NCBI RefSeq assembly: GCF_003611695.1
Contig: NZ_RAWE01000003.1
Span: forward strand, 1 to 64,000
DNA: 64,000 nucleotides
Source: Corallococcus carmarthensis
GTDB lineage: Bacteria > Myxococcota > Myxococcia > Myxococcales > Myxococcaceae
Direction: 5' to 3'
Shown piece by piece: positions 31,094 through 44,502 of the stretch (position 1 is the stretch's first letter; every line of letters begins with the position of its first letter). The position numbers and the translations under genes are program-made. The notes beneath the pieces are model-generated. The model had not been told where the DNA came from, did not search any database, and worked only from the letters and a program-made list of their open reading frames with translations.

Positions 31094-31413
31094 CACGGGA
31101 AGATCTTGGCACGGAGACGGAGCAAGTGTCCGGAACACAGCGGGTCCTGGCCCGGAGCGCATCGGCCAATTGGCGGAGGCCCGACTGCCCGGGGACGCCA
31201 ACCCCACTGCCTTCGGCCGACGCACGACCGGCAAGACAGGGGCAATCCATGACACAGTAGCCCCCGTGAGGGGGACACATGGACGGGTCAGCCGGGCTTC
31301 CTCGCCCACGACCCGACGCAAAGCCGCCCGCTCCTCCAGCCAGACGGTGATGGGACTTGCGTATGTTCTCCGGCACGCGACACGCCGACAAACATCCCCC
31401 CTGGGACCTCCCC
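31094..31413. promoter_or_regulatory. divergent intergenic region, HD-GYP/LuxR and MYXO-CTERM protein genes
   Basis: 320 bp between start codons. It holds a perfect CCCCC-GTGA-GGGGG hairpin at 31261-31274 and, at 31357-31365, a CTTGCGTAT that recurs at 34339-34347 upstream of the next gene on this strand. The recurrence suggests a promoter element, but the function is unproven. No gene seen. Confidence 0.4.
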
Positions 31414-34281
31414 ATGAATACCGCCTCCCTGCTCCGGCGCTTCTGTCTGGCGCTTCCGCTGTTGTTCTCCTGTTCCACGCCGCCTCCTCCGGCGGCACCG
31501 GAAGCGGCGAAGGTGACGACGCGGGATGCCGCGCGGCTCGTGGCGCTTGGCGATGAGCGCACCTTCGGCCCGACCACGCCCCTGCCGTCCGCGTTCGACC
31601 AGCAACTGCCCGCGCTCTCCTCTGATGGCACCGGCTTCCTCGCGGTCTGGTCGGACGACGGGGCGCGTGGCGCCGGAAACATTCGCGGCGCGCGCATGGC
31701 GGCGGATGGAACGCTCGTCGACCCCGTGGGGTTCGCCATTGGCGAGGCGACGCAGTACTACCGCGTGGGTGCCCCCGGCGTCGTCTGGAACGGAAATGAA
31801 CATCTCGTGGTCTGGCAGCGCGGCTACTTTTCGGAGTCCGGGAACATCCTCGTCACCGTCGAGTCCGCGCTCGTCAGCCCGTCCGGCGCCATCCGGCGGT
31901 CCGCCCTGGCGCCGCGGCTGAACCTCCTGGTGCCGCAGGCCGTGAAGATCACCATGGGCGCCCACGGCTTCCTGGCGGCCTGGTCCGTTGGCACGCGCAT
32001 CATCGGCCTGCTCTTCGATGAGAGCGGTACCCCCGCGGCCCAGCCCATCGAGCTGATCGCGGGCAAGAGCCTGGGCGAGGGCCTGACGGTCATCTTCGAT
32101 GGCACGAACTACCTCGTCGTCGGGTCCGGGCAGCTCACCACCGGCGGGAGCCAGGGCATCTGGGCGCGCCGCTTCAACGCGTCGGGGGCGCCCGTGGATG
32201 CGGCGCCCTTCAGCCTGAGCGGCGATGTCCTCGCCGCCAGGCCCTCCGCGGCGCGGGTGGGCGACAACGTGCTCGTCGCATGGGAGGACGCGGGCTCGAC
32301 CGGGGGCGCGGAGTGGGACATCCAGGGCGCCCTCGTGACACCGGGCAGCACCGCGGCCGACCGGTTCCTCATCGCGGACGGGACGGCTGGCAATGGCAAG
32401 AAGCAGCCCGCCATCGCCTTCGACGGGACGCACGCGCTCGTGGCCTGGGCGGATGAGGCTTCCAAGCAGGTGCGCGCCGTGCGTGTCCCCGCGGCTGGCA
32501 GCGGTGGGCCGGGCGAGCCCATCACCGTGCTCGACCCGCAGGGGGTGGCCACGGAGCCTTGCGTGGCGTTCAGCGGCGGCAGCTTCCTGGTGGCGGGGAC
32601 CCGGTCCCTCCCCGTCGGTGGCAACGACGTCGTCGCCGCCCGCGTGAGTCCGGAGGGCACCCGCGTCGATGCGGCGCCCGTGACGCTTTCGGTGGGGGCC
32701 CCGGCGCAGATGACGCCTCGCGTGGCCTGGTCCCGGGACCGCGCGCTGATGGTCTGGTCAGCCTGGAACGGCGTGGCCTTGGACATCCACGGCGTCCGGC
32801 TGGATGCGAACTTCCAACCCCTGGACGGGACGCCGTTCGTCATCTCCGGTGCGGAGGGCAACCAGGATGAACCGGACGTGGTGTCGAACGGAGAGGACTT
32901 CCTCGTGGTCTGGCGGGACGACCGGAAGGATGACACCGGAACCCGGCGTGACATCTACGGCGCGCGAGTCACCGCGGAGGGAGCGGTGATGGACGCCCAG
33001 GGAATCGCCATCGCCGCGGGCGACCCGCCCGTGGGCCCTCCGACGGCGCGCCAGCATCCCCGGGTCGCCGTCGATGGCTACCGCTACGTCGTGGGCTGGT
33101 CGCACGACAACAGTGAGGTGGAACTCGCGCAGGTCAGCCCCCAGGGTTGGGTGAGCGGGAACGTCACTGTCGCGAAGGCGAACAACACCAGCAGCTTCGG
33201 GCTTGCCTGCACGCTGAATGGCCTCTGCGCGGTGGTGCTCCCGCTGGACTACCGGGGGTTCTCTCCCCTGGCGTTGTACCGGTTCGACTCCCTCCTGACG
33301 AAGTTGAACGAGGCGCCGATGTTCGTCTCGCCTCTCGAGGACCACACCCGGGCCGCGGGCCTCACGTTCGACGGCACCCAATTCGTGGCCGCCTGGATAT
33401 CCAACAAGAAGTCGAGTCCCGCGGTGCTCGCGGCCCGGTTCACGCCGGTGGGGACCGTGCTGGATGGAACACCGGTCGAGGTCGCGACCGAGGCGAACGC
33501 CAGCGAGCCCCAGCTCGCGTCGGACGGCCACGCCGTGCTCATGACGTGGGAGCAGCGCACCTCCGGCAGCTGGGACGTCATGGGACGGCAGTTCGACAAG
33601 GCGCTCGTGGGACCGCCAGCGGAGGCGCTCGCGAAGCGGCCCACGGACGAACGCGCCCCGTCGCTCGCGGTCTCCGCGGCCGGCGCGGTCATCGCCGTCT
33701 GGGAACTGGATGACCCGGGGCAAGGCGCCATAAGGGTGCACGCGAGCACGGGACGCCTCCTCTCCGTCCTGGGCACGGCCTGTGGCGCCGCGACCGACTG
33801 CGGCAGTGGCTTCTGCGTGGACGGCGTGTGCTGCGACTCCGCCTGCGGCGGTGGCACGTCCGACTGCATCGCATGCAGCATGGCGGCGGGCGCGGCGGCG
33901 GACGGGACCTGCGGTCCCCGGGCGGCCAATGCCACCTGCGACGACGGAGCGGCGTGCACGCAGAACGACCTCTGCCAGGGCGCGAGCTGCGTCGGAGCCC
34001 CCAAGACGGCGCCCTCGCCCGGCCCGTGTCAGGTCATCACCCCGGTGTGTGATCCCGAAACAGGGGACTTCCCCACCACGCAGGCGCCGGACGGAACCGC
34101 CTGCGACACGGGTGAGTGCCGCGCGGGAGCCTGCGTGCCAAAGAACGACCCTCCGGACGACGCCGAGCCGGAGGAGTCCGGCTGCGGCTGCACCACCGGC
34201 CCTGGCGCGGCGGGCACGTCGTTCATGCTCCTGCTGACGCTGACGGGAATCCTCTGGCGCCGGGCGGGACACGGCCGGTAG
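31414..34281 (+). CDS. surface beta-repeat protein with Cys-rich stalk and MYXO-CTERM-like signal
   Basis: 955 aa. The signal peptide ends in a lipobox-like LLFSCS. Then come about 700 residues of repeated beta-strands with a recurring pattern (SDGTGFLAVWSDD, DGTNYLVVGSG, DGTHALVAWADE, NGEDFLVVWRDD), typical of propeller-like secreted proteins. Residues about 805-920 are a Cys-rich domain (CGAATDCGSGFCVDGVCCD and CDDGAACTQNDLC) similar to growth-factor/dickkopf-type repeats seen in myxobacterial surface proteins. The C-terminus has ESGCGCTTG, a hydrophobic segment and a final WRRAGHGR, the MYXO-CTERM pattern for cell-surface sorting. Both a lipobox and a C-terminal signal are present, which is unusual. 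Function unknown, and adhesion or prey contact is only a guess. Confidence 0.83.
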   Translation: MNTASLLRRFCLALPLLFSCSTPPPPAAPEAAKVTTRDAARLVALGDERTFGPTTPLPSAFDQQLPALSSDGTGFLAVWSDDGARGAGNIRGARMAADGTLVDPVGFAIGEATQYYRVGAPGVVWNGNEHLVVWQRGYFSESGNILVTVESALVSPSGAIRRSALAPRLNLLVPQAVKITMGAHGFLAAWSVGTRIIGLLFDESGTPAAQPIELIAGKSLGEGLTVIFDGTNYLVVGSGQLTTGGSQGIWARRFNASGAPVDAAPFSLSGDVLAARPSAARVGDNVLVAWEDAGSTGGAEWDIQGALVTPGSTAADRFLIADGTAGNGKKQPAIAFDGTHALVAWADEASKQVRAVRVPAAGSGGPGEPITVLDPQGVATEPCVAFSGGSFLVAGTRSLPVGGNDVVAARVSPEGTRVDAAPVTLSVGAPAQMTPRVAWSRDRALMVWSAWNGVALDIHGVRLDANFQPLDGTPFVISGAEGNQDEPDVVSNGEDFLVVWRDDRKDDTGTRRDIYGARVTAEGAVMDAQGIAIAAGDPPVGPPTARQHPRVAVDGYRYVVGWSHDNSEVELAQVSPQGWVSGNVTVAKANNTSSFGLACTLNGLCAVVLPLDYRGFSPLALYRFDSLLTKLNEAPMFVSPLEDHTRAAGLTFDGTQFVAAWISNKKSSPAVLAARFTPVGTVLDGTPVEVATEANASEPQLASDGHAVLMTWEQRTSGSWDVMGRQFDKALVGPPAEALAKRPTDERAPSLAVSAAGAVIAVWELDDPGQGAIRVHASTGRLLSVLGTACGAATDCGSGFCVDGVCCDSACGGGTSDCIACSMAAGAAADGTCGPRAANATCDDGAACTQNDLCQGASCVGAPKTAPSPGPCQVITPVCDPETGDFPTTQAPDGTACDTGECRAGACVPKNDPPDDAEPEESGCGCTTGPGAAGTSFMLLLTLTGILWRRAGHGR

Positions 34282-38219: not shown

Positions 38220-38564
38220 GCCTTGGCAACGGAGGCCAGCACGCGCCGCCTGCGCGATGCCCCACCCGCAACGCCGCACCGTGGCATCGGGGCCGTGGCA
38301 CTGGGAGTACCGGCCCCGGAACGGCGAGGACGGCCTGGTGCGACCGTTGGACGTGCAACCGCCTGCACCCCGGGTCGGTCAGGATGCGAGCTGAACGCCC
38401 GGCCGGGCAAGCCGCCTGGAAAAGTTCAATGATTCCAGGCCCCTGGCGATTCGACGCTCCTGGCCCGCGCGTGTAATCCTGGAAAACGAGTCTCAAGCAA
38501 CTCGCGCGCTTCGCGTCCGATAATCAGTTCAAGTTCCGCCCCTTCCAAACCTACGAGGCCCACC
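38220..38564. other. intergenic spacer
   Basis: 345 bp without a credible gene. It holds the hairpin at 38288-38318 and, near its right end, GAGG six bases before the next ATG. I see no clear promoter. Confidence 0.5.
38288..38318 (+). terminator. possible hairpin terminator of the serine protease gene
   Basis: 8-bp stem CGGGGCCG / CGGCCCCG with a 15-base loop, about 70 bp after the stop codon. No T-tract. Confidence 0.45.
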
Positions 38565-39593
38565 ATGGGTTTCCCCGACATCAAGCGCACCTTCAACGCC
38601 GTCCGCACCAACGTCCAGCAGACCTTCGAGGCCAACAAGCAGCTCGTGAAGGGCGGGATCGCGGTCGCGACGCAGGCGTCGAAGGCGATCAACTTCAGCA
38701 AGGACGCCTTCCAGCAGATCAAGAACATCAAGGACGGCGCCCAGGGCATCCTCGGGAAGACGAACCTGGACTTCGTCCGCAACCCGACCTTCTCCCAGGG
38801 CTTCAAGGGGCTGACCAAGTTCGGCGCGCAGATGGGCGCCGCCATGCGCTACGCGGGCATCCCCGGCGCGGTGGCCGCGGGCGCCACGGCCTTCAAGGAC
38901 GTCCGCCAGGCCATCCGCTCCGGCAGCAAGGACGACATCATCACCGCCACGCGCTCCTCCCTGGACGCGGCCAAGTCCACCATCTCCGCCGCGACGGGCG
39001 GCATCGTCGGCAGCAAGGTGATGGGCGGCGTGCTGGGCGGCAGCATCTTCAAGGGCAAGCTGGACGCCGGCAAGGCGGCCTTCGACACCTTCAAGAAGGC
39101 GCTCCCCAACGCCAGCGACGACGTGCTCAAGGCCGTCAAGGGCGCCGCCACCAAGGGCATCATGGAGGGGGCGTCGCTGAAGAACGTGGGCCGCGCCGTC
39201 ACCACCGCCGCGGGCGACGCCGCGAAGGCGGGCAGCACGCTGGCCAAGGGCATCCTGGGCAGCGGGACGCGCTCCGCCGCCAAGGCCGCGCTGTCCACGG
39301 TGGGCCGCGAGGCCGGTGAGGCCGCCCTCAAGCAGGGCGCGAAGGCCGCCGCGGGCACCGCCGCCAAGGCGCTGGGCCGGTTCGCCCCGGGCGTCAACGT
39401 GGCCATCGCCGCCGTGGACGTGGCCAACGCGGGCGCGACGCTGATGGACAAGAACGCGGGCGTCGGCAAGAAGGTGACGTCGGTCATCACCGCGGTGGGC
39501 TCCATCGCCGCGGCCACCAACATCCCCATCGTCAGCCAGGTGGGCGCCGCGGTCTCCACGGTGTCCAGCATCGTGGGCGCCTTCTTCAAGTAA
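38565..39593 (+). CDS. Ala/Gly/Lys-rich helical protein of unknown function
   Basis: 342 aa, no signal peptide, no recognisable family. After 100 residues with normal composition (DIKRTFNAVRTNVQQTFEA) it becomes extremely rich in Ala, Gly, Lys, Ser and Val with few aromatic residues. Repeating units such as AAKAALSTVGREAGEAAL and GKAAFDTFKKAL look amphipathic, and hydrophobic glycine-zipper-like stretches fill the C-terminus (VNVAIAAVDVANAGATL, then IPIVSQVGAAVSTV). Such composition is seen in secreted pore-forming or membrane-inserting proteins and in some contact-dependent toxins, but this is only resemblance. GAGG lies six bases before the ATG. It is followed by a trigger-factor paralogue on the same strand, which could help keep it soluble. 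Confidence 0.75.
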   Translation: MGFPDIKRTFNAVRTNVQQTFEANKQLVKGGIAVATQASKAINFSKDAFQQIKNIKDGAQGILGKTNLDFVRNPTFSQGFKGLTKFGAQMGAAMRYAGIPGAVAAGATAFKDVRQAIRSGSKDDIITATRSSLDAAKSTISAATGGIVGSKVMGGVLGGSIFKGKLDAGKAAFDTFKKALPNASDDVLKAVKGAATKGIMEGASLKNVGRAVTTAAGDAAKAGSTLAKGILGSGTRSAAKAALSTVGREAGEAALKQGAKAAAGTAAKALGRFAPGVNVAIAAVDVANAGATLMDKNAGVGKKVTSVITAVGSIAAATNIPIVSQVGAAVSTVSSIVGAFFK

Positions 39594-39598
39594 GCGTT

Positions 39599-39615
39599 CA
39601 AACCCTCGCGGTTTG
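39599..39615 (+). terminator. small hairpin after the helical protein gene
   Basis: 6-bp stem CAAACC / GGTTTG with a 5-base loop, 5 bp after the stop codon. Weak, and may only attenuate read-through to the trigger-factor paralogue. Confidence 0.35.
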
Positions 39616-39717
39616 TCAGAGCGGCTCGGCTGGACTAGATCTCAGTCCATGCCGAGCCGTCGCTTTGTTCCCCATTGGCGCGGACGCGGACACGTCGTCT
39701 ATCTCCCGGGAGCATTC

Positions 39718-40803
39718 GTGACCCCCCCTCAAGGGACTGCAGGATCCGGCCGCGGTGTCGAGCGACTGCTGAAGATGAGCCCGGTGGTGAGCAGCGTCTC
39801 CGCCGAAGCTCTCAAGCTTCCCAGCGTGCAGGCCCCCTCCCTGGAGGGCATCGCCGTGAGCGTCCCCACCCCGGACGACCTCACGGAAGAGGACCTGCTG
39901 CGCGCCTTCCACGAGAAGCGCCGCGCCCTGGCCACCACGCGCGAGCGTCAGAAGGGCGAAGCGCTGGAGCCGGGCGACGACGTCCAGCTCAACATCGTGG
40001 GCTATTGCGACGGCAAGCTCATCCCCTTCTCCGCGCGCTTCGGCATGACGACGGAGCTGGCGCCCATCGAGGCGCTGCCCGGGTTCTGCGAGGCCCTGGC
40101 GGAGGGCGGCAAGGTGGGCGAGTCCATGCAGATCGCCCTGGAGCTTCCGGCGGACTACCCGGTCGAAGGCCTCCAGGGGAAGCCCGCCCGCTTCCTGGTG
40201 GACATCGTCGGCGCCCACCAGGTGACGATGCTTCCGGACAGCTCCCCGGAGTTCCTCCAGAAGCTGGGGATGGGCAGCACGCTGGAAGAGGTGTTCGCCA
40301 ACATCCGCGAAGAATTGGAGGACGAGGTCGCGGGGCAGCTCTGGGCTCGGGCCCAGGACATGGTCCTGGACGAGGTGGCCCGGCGCGCGCCGGTGGAGCT
40401 TCCCCGGGTGCTGGTGGAGGAGGAGCTCCGCCGCCGCTGGGTCCAGGCCGAGGGCCAGGCCATGGTCGCCTACCACTTCGACGTGGACGAGCAGCAGGAA
40501 GCGCTCCAGGGGTGGCTCACGGACCCCACCACGCGCGCGGACACCGAGCGCCGGTTGCACATCGGCATCGCGCTGAAGGCCGTCACCGAGGCGGAGAAGC
40601 TGCAGCTCACGCCGGAGAAGCTGGAGCAGCTGATCCGCGACTACGTGGAGCCCTTCGGGTTGAGCGCGGAGGACGCCCACGCCGCCCTGCGTGAGTCGCC
40701 CGAGACGACACGCCGCCTGGCCGAGCTGGGCTGGTACCTGCTCGCCGTGGAGCACGTCATGAACAAGGCGAAGGTCACCTTCGAGGGCGCGGAGCAGGGC
40801 TGA
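39718..40803 (+). CDS. trigger-factor-like peptidyl-prolyl isomerase lacking the ribosome-binding domain
   Basis: About 361 aa. The FKBP-type domain (VQLNIVGYCDGKLIPF, then ALPGFCEALAEGGKVGES and LQGKPARFLVDIVGAHQ) and the helical C-terminal domain (LGMGSTLEEVFANIREELED and RVLVEEELRRRW) are those of trigger factor. What should be the N-terminal ribosome-binding domain with its GFRxGKxP motif is absent, as only about 65 unrelated residues precede the isomerase part. Start uncertain: GTG 39718 has GGGAG five bases upstream. ATG 39649 would add 23 residues without a ribosome site. It is probably a paralogue with a dedicated client rather than the housekeeping chaperone. It lies 124 bp after the helical protein gene. 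Confidence 0.82.
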   Translation: MTPPQGTAGSGRGVERLLKMSPVVSSVSAEALKLPSVQAPSLEGIAVSVPTPDDLTEEDLLRAFHEKRRALATTRERQKGEALEPGDDVQLNIVGYCDGKLIPFSARFGMTTELAPIEALPGFCEALAEGGKVGESMQIALELPADYPVEGLQGKPARFLVDIVGAHQVTMLPDSSPEFLQKLGMGSTLEEVFANIREELEDEVAGQLWARAQDMVLDEVARRAPVELPRVLVEEELRRRWVQAEGQAMVAYHFDVDEQQEALQGWLTDPTTRADTERRLHIGIALKAVTEAEKLQLTPEKLEQLIRDYVEPFGLSAEDAHAALRESPETTRRLAELGWYLLAVEHVMNKAKVTFEGAEQG

Positions 40804-40823: not shown

Positions 40824-41234
40824 TCAGCTCTCGCTGAACCACAGGCCCAGGCCGCCCAGCAGGCCCAGGCCCAGGAACATCACGGCCAGTCCCCACGTCT
40901 GGCGGCGCGACCACCGAAGCCCTTCGCCGTACCGGTGGCCACACCACAGGATGAGGACGGCGAACCCCAGGCAGATGGACGCGGGCCCGGCGGCGACCAG
41001 CATCCGGCGGGCCGTGCCGCTCACGTCCGCGACCGCCAGCACCGCCAGCGGCCAGAAGCCCACGACGAGCACGCCCAGCACCAGCCAGAAGGCCCCCCGC
41101 CCTTCCCAGGTGTTCAGCTCCAGGTAGTCCACGACGCGCCGCCACCAGGTGCGGGGCGGTTCCGGGGGCGGCGGCTCGGGGCTGCGCTGGGAGTTGTCGG
41201 GGAACACGGGCGTCTTTTCTAGCACGGGGGCCAT
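40824..41234 (-). CDS. small membrane protein of unknown function
   Basis: 136 aa. A proline-rich cytoplasmic start is followed by three hydrophobic segments (GAFWLVLGVLVVGFWPLAV, the segment with GPASICLGFAVLILWC, and VMFLGLGLLGGLG), so probably three membrane spans. No family recognised. ATG at 41234 is taken because the upstream extension is antisense-like noise. It begins 19 bp after the stop of the kelch gene on the same strand and may be transcribed with it. It converges on the trigger-factor paralogue. Confidence 0.7.
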   Translation of the reverse strand: MAPVLEKTPVFPDNSQRSPEPPPPEPPRTWWRRVVDYLELNTWEGRGAFWLVLGVLVVGFWPLAVLAVADVSGTARRMLVAAGPASICLGFAVLILWCGHRYGEGLRWSRRQTWGLAVMFLGLGLLGGLGLWFSES

Positions 41235-41253
41235 GGCCGGGAGACGTCCCGTG

Positions 41254-44200
41254 TCAGTACAGCTCCGCGCTGGCGAGGTAGGGCGCGGCGGTGCTGTTCT
41301 CGCCGCCCACCACGAGCAGTCTGCCATTGGCCAGCAGCGTGGCCGTGTGACCCCGGCGGGCCTGGATGAGCGAGCCGGTGCCGGACCACACCTTGAGGGC
41401 CGAGTCATACGCCTCGGCGGTGCCGAGGATGCCGGCGGTGCCCGCTCCGCCCACCACGAGCACCTTGAAATCGGGCATCCGCGTCTCCGTGAAATGGGAT
41501 CGGGCTTGCGCGAGCCCGGCCGCGGGGCGCCCGAGGGTCTGCGCGTTGCCCGGCGTGAAGGCCTCGGCCGTGGCGAGGGCGCCGCTGGCCCCCGCCCCGC
41601 CCATCACGAGCACCCCGCCGGTGTTCAGGAGCGTCGTGCCGTGCGCGTAGCGAGCCTGGGTGACGGAGCCCACGGCGGTCCAGGTGCCCGTGACCGGGTT
41701 GTACCGCTCGGCCGTGGCAACGGCAGCGGAGCCATATCCGCCCACCACCAGTATCTGCCACTCGGGAGCCGCGGGCACCGCGGTCGCCGTGTGGGTGTGG
41801 CGACCCGCGGTGAGTGAGCCCGTCGTGCTCCAGGTGCCCGTCTCCGCGTCATAGATCTGGGCCGTGGCGAGGGCGCCGCTGGGGCCAGAGCCTCCCGCCA
41901 CGAGCACCTTGGCCGTATTGAGAAGCGGGGTCGCGGTGTGGAGATAGCGGGCCGTCGTCAGCGAGCCGGCGGCGGTCCAGACGCCCGTGGCCGGGTCATA
42001 CACCTCCGCCGTGGCGAGCCGGGCACTGCCAAATCCACCCACCACGAGCACCCCGCCCGTCGCCAGCAGCGTCGCGGTGTGGGAGTAGCGGGCCTGGGCG
42101 AGCGCGCCCGTGGCGGACCACGTCCCGGTGACCGGATCATAGAGCTCCGCGCTCGCGAGCGCGCCGCTGGGACCCTGACCGCCCACCACGAGCACCTTGC
42201 CGTTGTCCAACCGCGTCGCCGTATGGAGGCGGCGGGCCTGCGCGAGCGCGCCGGTGGCGGTCCACGCGCCGACGGCCGGGTCGTACTCCTGGAAGCTGCT
42301 CAGGGGGCCGCTGGGTCCCGAGCCGCCCGCAATGAGCACCTTGCCGTCGGGCAGCAGGGTCGCCGTGTGCCAGGTGCGGCGCTGCGCGAGCGGGGCGAAG
42401 GAGCGCCAGGTGCCGGCCGCGGGGGTCAGGACCTCGGTGCTGGAGAGGATGTCGCTGGGGCCCTTGCCGCCCGCCACGAGCACCGTGCCATCCGGCAGCA
42501 GCGTCGCGGTGTGCTGGGAGCGGGCCACCGCCAGCGAGCCCGTCGCCGTCCAGACGCCGGTGGCCGGCGCGTAGAGCTGGGCGGTGGCAAGCGGGGCGCT
42601 GGCGCCAGCTCCACCCGCCACCAGCACCTTGCCGTCGGGCAGCAGCGTCGCCGTGTGGCTGGAGCGGGCCGCGGCCAATGCGCCCGTCGCCGTCCAGGCG
42701 CCAGTGGCCGGATCATAGAGCTGCGCGGTGGCCAGCGGGGCGGTGGCGCTCCTGCCGCCAACGACCAGCACCTTGCCGTTGGGCAGCAGCGTCGCCGTGT
42801 GGCTGGAGCGGGCCGCGGCCAGTGTGCCCGTCACCGTCCAGGTGCCGGTGGCCGGATCAAACACCTCCGAGGTCGCGAGGGGCGCGCTGGGGCCCTGCCC
42901 TCCCGCGACGAGGACCCGGCCGTCGGGCAGCAACGTCGCCGTGTGGACGCTGCGCGCCTGCGCGAGCGAACCCGTGGGACTCCAGGCGCCGGTCGCGGGG
43001 TCATACAGCTCGCAGGTCGCGAGCGGGCCGCTGGGGCCCTGGCCACCGGTGACGAGCACCCGGCCATCACTCAACGGTGTCGCCGTGTGGCTGGAGCGGG
43101 CCTGGGCGAGCGCGCCGGTGGTGGACGCGGTGTGGGTGAACGGGTCGTGCAGTTCGGCGCTGGCGACGGGGCCGTTGGGGCCCTGCCCTCCCGCCACGAG
43201 CACCCGGCCGTCGGCCAGCGGGGTCGCCGTGTGGAGCTGACGGGCCTCGGAGAGCGACGGCGGCGCGGTCCAGAAGCCGGTGGCCGGGTCGTACACCTCG
43301 GAGGTCGCGAGGCGGTAGCCGCCGGGGGCCAGCCCTCCCGCCACGAGCACCCGGCCATCGAGCAGCCTCGTCGCCGTGTGGAAGCCGCGAGCCTGCGTGA
43401 GCCAGCCGGTGAAGGAGGCGCCAGTCGCCGGGTCATACACCTCGGCACTCTTGGGGGCGCTGCTGGTGCTGTCGAATCCGAACGCCTCGTGTCCGCCCAC
43501 GAGGAGCACCCGGCCATTGGGCAGCGGCGTCGCCGTGTGCTGGGAACGGCCCTGGAGGCCGGTGGCGGCGGTGGCGGCCCAGACGCCGGTGACCGGGTTG
43601 TACGCCACGGCGGTGGCGTAGACGGTACCGCTGGGGCCACCCCCGCCCGCCACGAGCACCCGGCCATCGGACAGCAGCGTCAGCGCGGGAGCGTCACGGT
43701 AGTGAGGGAGTGCACCGGTCGCGGCCCACGTGCCGGTCGCAGGGGTGTAGAGCAGGGCCGAGGAGTAGTAGCTCGTACTGGAGGTGCTCAAGGACCTCCC
43801 GCCCACGAGCAGCACCTTGCCATTGGGCAGCAGCGTCGCCCGGTGTTCGTAGCGGATGTTGGGGAGTGAGCCGGTGGGGGTCCACGTGCCGGTGGCCGGG
43901 TCATACAGCTCGGCCGTGGCGAGCGCCGTGGGGATGTTCTCCATGGGGACGCCGGGCGGGTAGCGGCCGTATCCGCCCGCCACCAGCACCTTGCCATTGG
44001 GCAGCAGCGTCGCGGTGTGTGAGTAGCGGGCCTGGATGAGCGAGCCGGTGGCGGACCACGTCCCGGTGGCCGGGTCAAACAGCTCCGCGAGGGCGACGTT
44101 GCCGCTGCTCCCCGTCCCGCCAACCACGAGCACCCTGCCGTCGTTCAGCAAGGTCGCCGTGAGGTGACGGCGGAGCACCGCGAGCGAGCCGGTGGCGGAC

Positions 44201-44502
44201 CACGTGTTGGTGGCCGGGTCATACACCTCGGCCGTGACGAGCTCACCGCTGGGCCCCGTCCCGCCCACCACGAGCACCCTGCCGTCGGCCAGCAGCGTCG
44301 CCGCGTGCTCCGTCCGGACCGACGTCATGGAGGCCGTGAGGGGGAGCGCCATCGCCCCATCTCCTTCGTGTTCCGGCCCGGGCCCGCAGGCAAGAAGCGC
44401 GAGCGCGAGCGCCGCTGCCAGGTGGATGGTGCGATGACGAGGCCCGGGGGCTGCGGCGCGCGACGGAGTCGCTGCCAGGGAGAGGTGATGCATGGGGTTC
44501 AC
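41254..44502 (-). CDS. kelch-repeat (beta-propeller) lipoprotein
   Basis: 1,082 aa. A signal peptide ends in a lipobox LALLAC, then come 21 copies of a unit of about 49 residues. Each contains the core D/N-G-K/R-V-L-V-V/A-G-G and YDPATGTW or a variant. Twenty-one units would make three seven-bladed kelch propellers. Such proteins usually mediate surface binding or, in the galactose-oxidase branch, catalysis. I see none of the copper-radical residues needed for the latter. GTG at 44502 or ATG at 44493 could be the start, as neither has a clear ribosome site. It is divergent from the large hydrolase across a region with a 17-bp inverted repeat. The high repetition makes recombination or copy-number change likely. 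Confidence 0.9.
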   Translation of the reverse strand: MNPMHHLSLAATPSRAAAPGPRHRTIHLAAALALALLACGPGPEHEGDGAMALPLTASMTSVRTEHAATLLADGRVLVVGGTGPSGELVTAEVYDPATNTWSATGSLAVLRRHLTATLLNDGRVLVVGGTGSSGNVALAELFDPATGTWSATGSLIQARYSHTATLLPNGKVLVAGGYGRYPPGVPMENIPTALATAELYDPATGTWTPTGSLPNIRYEHRATLLPNGKVLLVGGRSLSTSSTSYYSSALLYTPATGTWAATGALPHYRDAPALTLLSDGRVLVAGGGGPSGTVYATAVAYNPVTGVWAATAATGLQGRSQHTATPLPNGRVLLVGGHEAFGFDSTSSAPKSAEVYDPATGASFTGWLTQARGFHTATRLLDGRVLVAGGLAPGGYRLATSEVYDPATGFWTAPPSLSEARQLHTATPLADGRVLVAGGQGPNGPVASAELHDPFTHTASTTGALAQARSSHTATPLSDGRVLVTGGQGPSGPLATCELYDPATGAWSPTGSLAQARSVHTATLLPDGRVLVAGGQGPSAPLATSEVFDPATGTWTVTGTLAAARSSHTATLLPNGKVLVVGGRSATAPLATAQLYDPATGAWTATGALAAARSSHTATLLPDGKVLVAGGAGASAPLATAQLYAPATGVWTATGSLAVARSQHTATLLPDGTVLVAGGKGPSDILSSTEVLTPAAGTWRSFAPLAQRRTWHTATLLPDGKVLIAGGSGPSGPLSSFQEYDPAVGAWTATGALAQARRLHTATRLDNGKVLVVGGQGPSGALASAELYDPVTGTWSATGALAQARYSHTATLLATGGVLVVGGFGSARLATAEVYDPATGVWTAAGSLTTARYLHTATPLLNTAKVLVAGGSGPSGALATAQIYDAETGTWSTTGSLTAGRHTHTATAVPAAPEWQILVVGGYGSAAVATAERYNPVTGTWTAVGSVTQARYAHGTTLLNTGGVLVMGGAGASGALATAEAFTPGNAQTLGRPAAGLAQARSHFTETRMPDFKVLVVGGAGTAGILGTAEAYDSALKVWSGTGSLIQARRGHTATLLANGRLLVVGGENSTAAPYLASAELY

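What the first reader, a model, noticed from the sequence alone, without database searches (positions are those of the whole stretch)
38565..40803. Ala/Gly-rich helical protein followed by a trigger factor without its ribosome-binding domain
Seen: the 342-aa protein looks hydrophobic and amphipathic without a signal, and the next gene encodes an isomerase/chaperone lacking the ribosome-docking part. Inference: dedicated chaperone and client, the client possibly a secreted or membrane-inserting toxin.
Basis: partly seen in the sequence, partly recalled or inferred. Interest (0 to 1): 0.5.

Follow-up and report, generated by a model that had tools for sequence, protein, structure and literature searches.

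The report
Helical protein with its own chaperone
In predatory soil bacteria called myxobacteria, almost every 'extra' copy of a general folding helper (trigger factor) that was examined sits directly behind one family of alanine-rich helical proteins, which suggests a dedicated helper-and-client pair for a possibly very abundant protein rather than a toxin.

Summary
Window 38565-39593 encodes a 342-aa, basic, Ala/Gly-rich, all-helical protein (P1). 39649-40803 encodes a trigger-factor-like chaperone (TFL) with the isomerase and C-terminal domains but no ribosome-binding domain. The pair is a conserved cassette of myxobacteria: 134 of 150 listed P1 matches have a TFL directly downstream, and 134 of 144 TFL matches a P1 upstream. 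Genomes carry up to five pairs at unrelated places. All 50 TFLs tested form one clade apart from 16 canonical trigger factors, and the P1 and TFL trees agree. P1 paralogs share little beyond a ~76-aa hydrophobic C-terminal domain. P1 is basic and TFL acidic in 47 of 47 pairs. P1's codon adaptation is the highest of 104 called ORFs, above both GroELs, predicting an abundant protein. A published study of the M. xanthus TFLs found no ribosome binding, refolding activity, stress and sporulation phenotypes and no predation defect; the parts I read and searched do not mention the paired gene. 'Dedicated chaperone and client' is supported (inferred, not shown biochemically); 'toxin' is not. P1's own role is open; an abundant membrane- or envelope-associated structural or stress-protective protein fits best.

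The parts
38497..38524 (+). conserved promoter-like element upstream of P1 (GCAACT, 16 nt, GATAAT; 40 nt before the start codon)
   Evidence: alignment of the upstream regions of 16 orthologs: first box kept apart from one variant (GCAACC), second kept apart from one variant (GACAAT), most of the rest varies; function inferred
38565..39593 (+). P1: 342-aa basic Ala/Gly-rich helical client protein
   Evidence: ORF; family in 73 of 195 phylum genomes; no Pfam/NCBIfam match, no meaningful PDB match
39363..39590 (+). P1 C-terminal hydrophobic domain (residues 267-342), the part conserved across all paralogs
   Evidence: alignments A1 and A4; lowest dN/dS of three P1 regions in 6 of 8 comparisons (not L112, L124)
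39622..39659 (+). inverted repeat / hairpin at the P1-TFL junction that contains the TFL start codon (arms 39622-39635 and 39645-39659)
   Evidence: arms invariant in 15 orthologs except one position in one of them; fold z-score -5.0; function unknown
39649..40803 (+). TFL: trigger-factor-like chaperone without ribosome-binding domain (384 aa from ATG 39649)
39649..39810 (+). TFL N-terminal extension (residues 1-54), predicted disordered, in place of the ribosome-binding domain
   Evidence: pLDDT below 50 at residues 1-42 and 50-53
39817..40227 (+). TFL FKBP-like domain with a family-specific pocket (P126 in 49/50, S128 47/50, R130 46/50, L166 50/50; the L166 column is F in 16/16 canonical copies)
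40228..40800 (+). TFL C-terminal cradle/arm domain
   Evidence: PF05698, model and PDB 1w26 match
40824..41408 (-). c10: small protein with predicted membrane segments (three in most orthologs), convergent neighbour kept with this paralog group (exact start uncertain)
   Evidence: found next to 15 of 15 named group-A loci that have sequence downstream of TFL

Best explanation
The two genes are a client-chaperone cassette. P1 is made in very large amounts. It is basic, amphipathic and ends in a hydrophobic helical domain, so it would aggregate or insert wrongly if left free. The TFL, a trigger factor that lost its ribosome-docking domain once, before the cassette multiplied, works off the ribosome. 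Its acidic cradle and altered FKBP pocket hold newly made P1, most likely by the shared C-terminal domain, and release it at the membrane or another assembly site. There P1 acts as an abundant structural or stress-protective protein of the cell envelope or membrane; the adjacent small membrane protein (c10) of this paralog group fits such a site. Shown by calls: pairing, co-inheritance, single TFL clade, lack of the ribosome domain, opposite charges, codon bias. Inferred: binding, holding and release, site and role of P1 (my probability for the client-chaperone part alone is about 0.75, for the membrane/envelope role about 0.35).
For: Pairing: 134/150 P1 and 134/144 TFL matches are adjacent, same strand, P1 first; 51/54 named loci. 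No genome in the two lists has a TFL without a P1. Neighbours outside the pair differ between paralog groups. TFL: 50/50 in one clade against 16 canonical trigger factors, support 100/100. P1 and TFL distances correlate, Mantel r 0.65, 0 of 2000 permutations as high. In Hyalangium (G112), where one pair is split, both halves persist on different contigs (L157 P1, L187 TFL); in a relative (L185) a P1 lacking the C-domain and a TFL form one ORF. Charges: P1 positive 47/47, TFL negative 47/47, Spearman -0.42, p 0.003, not tree-corrected. P1 CAI 0.911, first of 104 called ORFs, GroELs 0.890 and 0.869; the second P1 of this genome 0.883; TFLs 0.70 and 0.79; with amino-acid make-up held fixed P1 exceeds expectation by 0.23 (z 7.1). 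Published: M. xanthus TFLs do not bind ribosomes, refold GAPDH, and their deletion gives stress or sporulation defects (PMC11559001).
Against: No interaction data. The published pull-downs report mostly unique substrates per TFL, including ribosomal proteins and OmpA; whether P1 is among them is in a supplement I could not read. Purified TFLs refold a generic substrate, so they are not strictly client-specific. A few TFLs sit behind other proteins without the P1 C-domain (L188, L190, L191), and P1-like proteins without TFL exist (L174, L177, L179, L186, L189). P1 structure is predicted poorly. High codon adaptation was shown for two paralog groups only; over 48 pairs P1 exceeds TFL in GC3 in 31. 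By z-score, which grows with gene length, P1 (7.1) is not first: five of the 87 genes scored, three of them not GroEL, reach 7.3 or more.
Confidence: 0.55

Rival explanations
1. The TFLs are simply duplicates of trigger factor that escaped a dosage limit by losing the ribosome domain and share out general folding work (the published model); the upstream gene is incidental.
For: Published in vitro refolding of GAPDH and partly overlapping substrates; four TF homologs with different stress and sporulation phenotypes (PMC11559001).
Against: All 50 TFLs form one clade on a long stem rather than nesting as repeated duplicates of each genome's own tig, and they multiply together with P1 (134/144); incidental linkage would hardly survive placement at unrelated sites.
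Confidence: 0.17
2. P1 is a secreted or membrane-inserting toxin and TFL its secretion chaperone.
For: Amphipathic helices, a near-membrane hydrophobic segment, no signal peptide; low-complexity variable N-termini in paralogs.
Against: Codon bias of a GroEL-level protein; no immunity gene shared by the paralog groups; not found in viral contigs; TFL knock-outs grow normally at 30 C and prey normally; orthologs of this group in other species and genera are 74-99% identical, not diversified like a toxin.
Confidence: 0.08
3. P1 is a basic DNA- or polymer-condensing protein (H1-like) and the acidic TFL acts like a histone chaperone.
For: Net charge +7 to +83 (median +24), Ala/Lys/Arg-rich, some paralogs with long Arg-rich repeats; acidic partner in 47/47.
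Against: The only family-wide conserved part is largely hydrophobic; TFL keeps trigger factor's architecture.
Confidence: 0.1
4. A toxin-antitoxin-chaperone type module in which TFL controls P1 toxicity inside the cell.
For: Two-gene unit, patchy distribution of this paralog group (10 of 16 genomes of the genus have a close ortholog).
Against: TFL single deletions in M. xanthus have wild-type growth at 30 C; P1 precedes TFL and is predicted to be made in excess.
Confidence: 0.03

Closest known systems
N-terminally deficient trigger factor homologs of Myxococcus xanthus, MXAN_6153, MXAN_1178, MXAN_1713 (Wan et al. 2024, PMC11559001)
   Same: Same protein family and architecture (FKBP-like plus C-terminal domain, no GFRxGxxP motif).
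   Different: The paper treats them as subfunctionalised duplicates; the words 'operon' and 'adjacent' do not occur in its main text, and the parts I read (abstract, sections 5, 7, 10, 11, passages) do not mention the upstream P1 gene.
Canonical trigger factor (TIGR00115; PDB 1w26)
   Same: FKBP-like domain and C-terminal cradle; Foldseek E 4.3e-16.
   Different: No ribosome-binding domain; altered FKBP pocket; separate clade.
Dedicated secretion chaperone-client pairs (type III secretion chaperones, recalled)
   Same: Acidic chaperone encoded next to one client.
   Different: The chaperone is a trigger factor and no secretion system is linked. Analogy only; no comparison was run.

Membership tests
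Trigger factor (tig, TIGR00115) | N-terminal ribosome-binding domain with GFRxGxxP-type motif | tested here: not met
   0 of 50 TFLs, 15 of 16 canonical; first ~55 residues predicted disordered
Trigger factor (tig, TIGR00115) | score above the curated cut-off | tested here: not met
   131.9 against 180.2 bits
Trigger factor (tig, TIGR00115) | C-terminal domain PF05698 | tested here: met
   E 1.3e-14, 55.1 bits against cut-off 22.7
Trigger factor (tig, TIGR00115) | FKBP-type isomerase domain | tested here: inconclusive
   PF00254 17.2 bits, under cut-off 21.1; fold predicted with high confidence and matching 1w26; pocket residues changed
N-terminally deficient TF homologs of myxobacteria (Wan et al. 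2024) | PPIase and C domain without RBS motif, in a genome with a complete tig | tested here: met
   TFLs as above; canonical tig at G000:C128
N-terminally deficient TF homologs of myxobacteria (Wan et al. 2024) | no ribosome binding in vitro | not testable with these tools
   shown for three M. xanthus members in the paper, not for this one
Dedicated chaperone-client pair | conserved adjacency and co-inheritance | tested here: met
Dedicated chaperone-client pair | physical binding, client instability without chaperone | not testable with these tools
   needs experiment
Toxin with immunity or antitoxin gene | linked immunity gene kept with all paralogs | tested here: not met
   no third gene shared across paralog groups
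Hydrophilin / LEA protein | strongly hydrophilic composition | tested here: not met
   GRAVY +0.16

The most novel reading that the evidence does not exclude
The cassettes are a chaperone-guided assembly or export route not yet described: the P1 C-terminal domain is a targeting module recognised by the off-ribosome trigger factor, which delivers very abundant basic helical proteins with variable N-terminal bodies to the cell envelope, without a signal peptide; cassette duplication has produced up to five such client-chaperone pairs per genome.
Probability: 0.2. Interest if true: 0.8.

Novelty: new variant of a known kind. Interest (0 to 1): 0.58.

Why it matters
It changes the reading of a published example of gene-duplicate evolution: the 'extra' trigger factors of myxobacteria look like one lineage that spread welded to one client family, instead of repeatedly duplicated general chaperones. 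It also points to an uncharacterised protein family predicted to be as strongly expressed as GroEL in a model group of social bacteria, and offers a natural system in which a trigger factor has a defined client.

Tried and rejected
Pfam, NCBIfam and PDB-sequence searches with the window P1, Pfam with 49 homologs and PHROGs with five P1s: nothing for the window P1; repeat-rich paralogs match phage tail proteins, which I read as low complexity. Foldseek with the P1 model: best E 1.5, meaningless at this confidence. Rfam: nothing near a gathering score. Viral contigs: none. Hydrophilin/LEA reading rejected on hydropathy. Covariation for the junction hairpin: arms in group A are nearly invariant, so they say nothing by pairing; the group-C alignment was too gappy and was not folded as a set. 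Of 20 junction stretches folded, 14 had z below -2 and 6 did not. An internal TFL promoter (TTGTCA, 17 nt, TA....) overlapping the inverted repeat was considered and not resolved. Literature searches: (no paper in the library names the neighbouring locus tags MXAN_6152, 6154, 1177, 1179, 1712 or 1714; these tags are inferred as neighbours, not verified). Other papers in those listings were seen as listing only.

Full report
What is there. The window lies in a 10.8-Mb genome with 530 contigs (G000:C333). Named relatives are Corallococcus, Myxococcus, Pyxidicoccus, Archangium, Citreicoccus and Hyalangium, so it is a myxobacterium, by nearest match Corallococcus (C. exercitus, 99% for P1). P1 has no family match. 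TFL matches trigger factor without the first ~95 model positions.

The pair is a unit. In 39 related genomes P1 was found in 19, and TFL copies lie directly downstream. A profile of the P1 C-terminal domain (A1) found P1 in 73 of 195 genomes of the phylum: 71 in the same family, one elsewhere in the order, one in another family at E 4e-4. A TFL profile found TFL in 70 of 96 genomes of the family. Matching the two lists: 134 of 150 listed P1 places have a TFL downstream on the same strand, and 134 of 144 TFL places have a P1 upstream (one search stopped listing weaker P1 matches, so 150 is the listed number). Unpaired P1 (16): two at contig ends (G003:C586, G134:C191; TFLs start contigs C27 and C167); one outside the family searched for TFL (G161, which is L141 and is paired); six weak, short-frame matches, of which two were read (L177, L179); three of a subfamily with a changed C-domain that were read (L174, L186, L189) and one of similar score not read (G113:C3); the split pair of G112 (C10); the G016 orphan (L071/L153); and G148:C6, not examined. 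Unpaired TFL (10): three at contig starts; G103 and G104, behind a different Ala/Gly/Ser/His repeat protein (L190, L191); G112:C21, behind another protein (L188); L185, a P1 without C-domain in one frame with TFL; L187, the other half of the split G112 pair; and two diverged second copies in G138 and G141. In 54 named loci, 51 are paired; the rest are a contig end (L133), the orphan (L153) and the split pair (L157); in L148 the TFL is broken into two frames.

Surroundings. Outside the pair, neighbouring genes are not shared between paralog groups. Within the window's group (A) one more gene, c10, is kept: 15 of 15 named loci with downstream sequence have it just beyond TFL, convergent in 14 and co-directional with a 16-nt overlap in L128; L123 and L126 end inside TFL; L127 lies outside this group's clade and lacks it. 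c10 has two or three predicted membrane segments.

Evolution. 50 TFLs and 16 canonical trigger factors separate cleanly (support 100/100, one side of a branch in all 200 bootstrap trees) on a long stem. The P1 tree and the TFL tree recover the same six groups nearly perfectly (6 and 5 changes, least possible 5), Mantel r 0.65; long branches weaken the deep part of the P1 tree. Between orthologs (seven comparisons, the near-identical L112 set aside) TFL has dN/dS 0.29-0.41; P1 0.46-0.73, with its C-domain at 0.06-0.50 and its middle at 0.52-1.03, partly because P1's synonymous changes are few (pS 0.13-0.19 against 0.21-0.27 in TFL; simple Nei-Gojobori counts).

Expression. P1 has GC3 0.99, first among 32 called genes of the window. 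With weights from the ribosomal-protein contig, P1 has CAI 0.911, first of 104 called ORFs (some counted twice because two fetched stretches overlap), GroEL 0.890 and 0.869, the second P1 of this genome 0.883, TFLs 0.704 and 0.790, tig 0.766. With amino-acid make-up held fixed, the excess over background codons is 0.23 for P1, 0.21 for the second P1, 0.23 and 0.20 for the GroELs. Other paralog groups do not show this clearly: P1 exceeds TFL in GC3 in 31 of 48 pairs. A promoter-like element and a strongly conserved inverted repeat around the TFL start codon fit unequal expression of the two genes, but how they act is not known.

TFL as a specialised chaperone. TFL is acidic and P1 basic in 47 of 47 pairs, and the charges anticorrelate (not corrected for the tree; canonical copies are also mostly acidic, 15 of 16). 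The FKBP-like domain carries residues not seen in canonical copies: position 116 is Y/F in 16 of 16 canonical and mostly I/V/T/L in TFL; position 166 is F in 16 of 16 and L in 50 of 50; P126, S128 and R130 are nearly invariant in TFL. This looks like a pocket turned to another ligand, with isomerase activity uncertain.

P1 as a client. The 47 members counted are Ala-rich (17-27%), 43 of them without cysteine. N-terminal bodies differ strongly between paralogs, up to 805 aa in all, with Pro-rich or repeated stretches. The C-domain carries an IPxxSQxG-like motif; the P1-like proteins that lack TFL and that I read (L174, L177, L179, L186, L189) have lost or changed it, while the orphans L153 and L157 keep it. 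This agrees with, but does not prove, the C-domain being what TFL recognises.

Published work. Wan et al. 2024 (PMC11559001; outline, abstract, sections 5, 7, 10, 11 and passages seen) describe the M. [quoted passage not shown] They explain the copies by dosage constraint and subfunctionalisation. Places of the copies in two closed genomes (group C at 1.44 Mb, tig at 2.29 and 2.42 Mb, group A at 7.69 Mb of 9.3 Mb in the one that has it) fit MXAN_1178, MXAN_2013 and MXAN_6153 by simple proportion; DK1622's size and numbering are recalled, and a third closed genome (G128) lies in another orientation or origin, so the assignment is a lead. If right, this window's TFL is the one whose loss weakens growth most under peroxide and salt.

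Verdict. Observation confirmed; 'dedicated chaperone and client' strongly supported by comparative evidence and not yet by experiment; 'toxin' disfavoured. The chaperone family is known; the strict pairing, the client family and its predicted abundance appear undescribed in the papers searched.

Noticed in passing
window 39614-39659: Inverted repeat with nearly invariant arms and variable loop that contains the TFL start codon; the invariant GTTTGTCA just upstream could also be part of an internal promoter.
   Followed up: partly
window 40824-41408 (-): c10, small membrane protein kept with this paralog group across genera (15 of 15 assessable named loci).
   Followed up: partly
L185 3476-5578 (-): Single 700-aa ORF joining a P1 that lacks its C-domain to a TFL in a genome of the same genus code as Hyalangium; natural fusion or assembly error not settled.
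   Followed up: partly
L188 4175-4900 and L190 1940-3064: TFLs preceded by other Ala/Gly-rich proteins without the P1 C-domain, so TFL clients may be broader than P1.
   Followed up: partly
L177 4309-4851, L179 4079-4615, L174 4602-5900, L186 3477-4715, L189 3042-4346: P1-like proteins without TFL that have lost or changed the IPxxSQxG motif.
   Followed up: partly
L065 1-621 (-): Another Lys/Ala-rich helical-looking protein a few kb from a P1-TFL pair.
   Followed up: no
window 41254-44502 (-): 1082-aa protein made almost wholly of kelch repeats (PF13418, E 1.8e-133).
   Followed up: no
window 31357-34281 (+): Large secreted-looking protein ending in a Cys-rich, hydrophobic, Arg-rich tail like the MYXO-CTERM sorting signal (motif recalled, not searched).
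   Followed up: no
L145 (record titled Comamonas sp. KCTC 72670): Record with a typical myxobacterial P1-TFL pair; the record's organism name may be wrong or the assembly contaminated.
   Followed up: no
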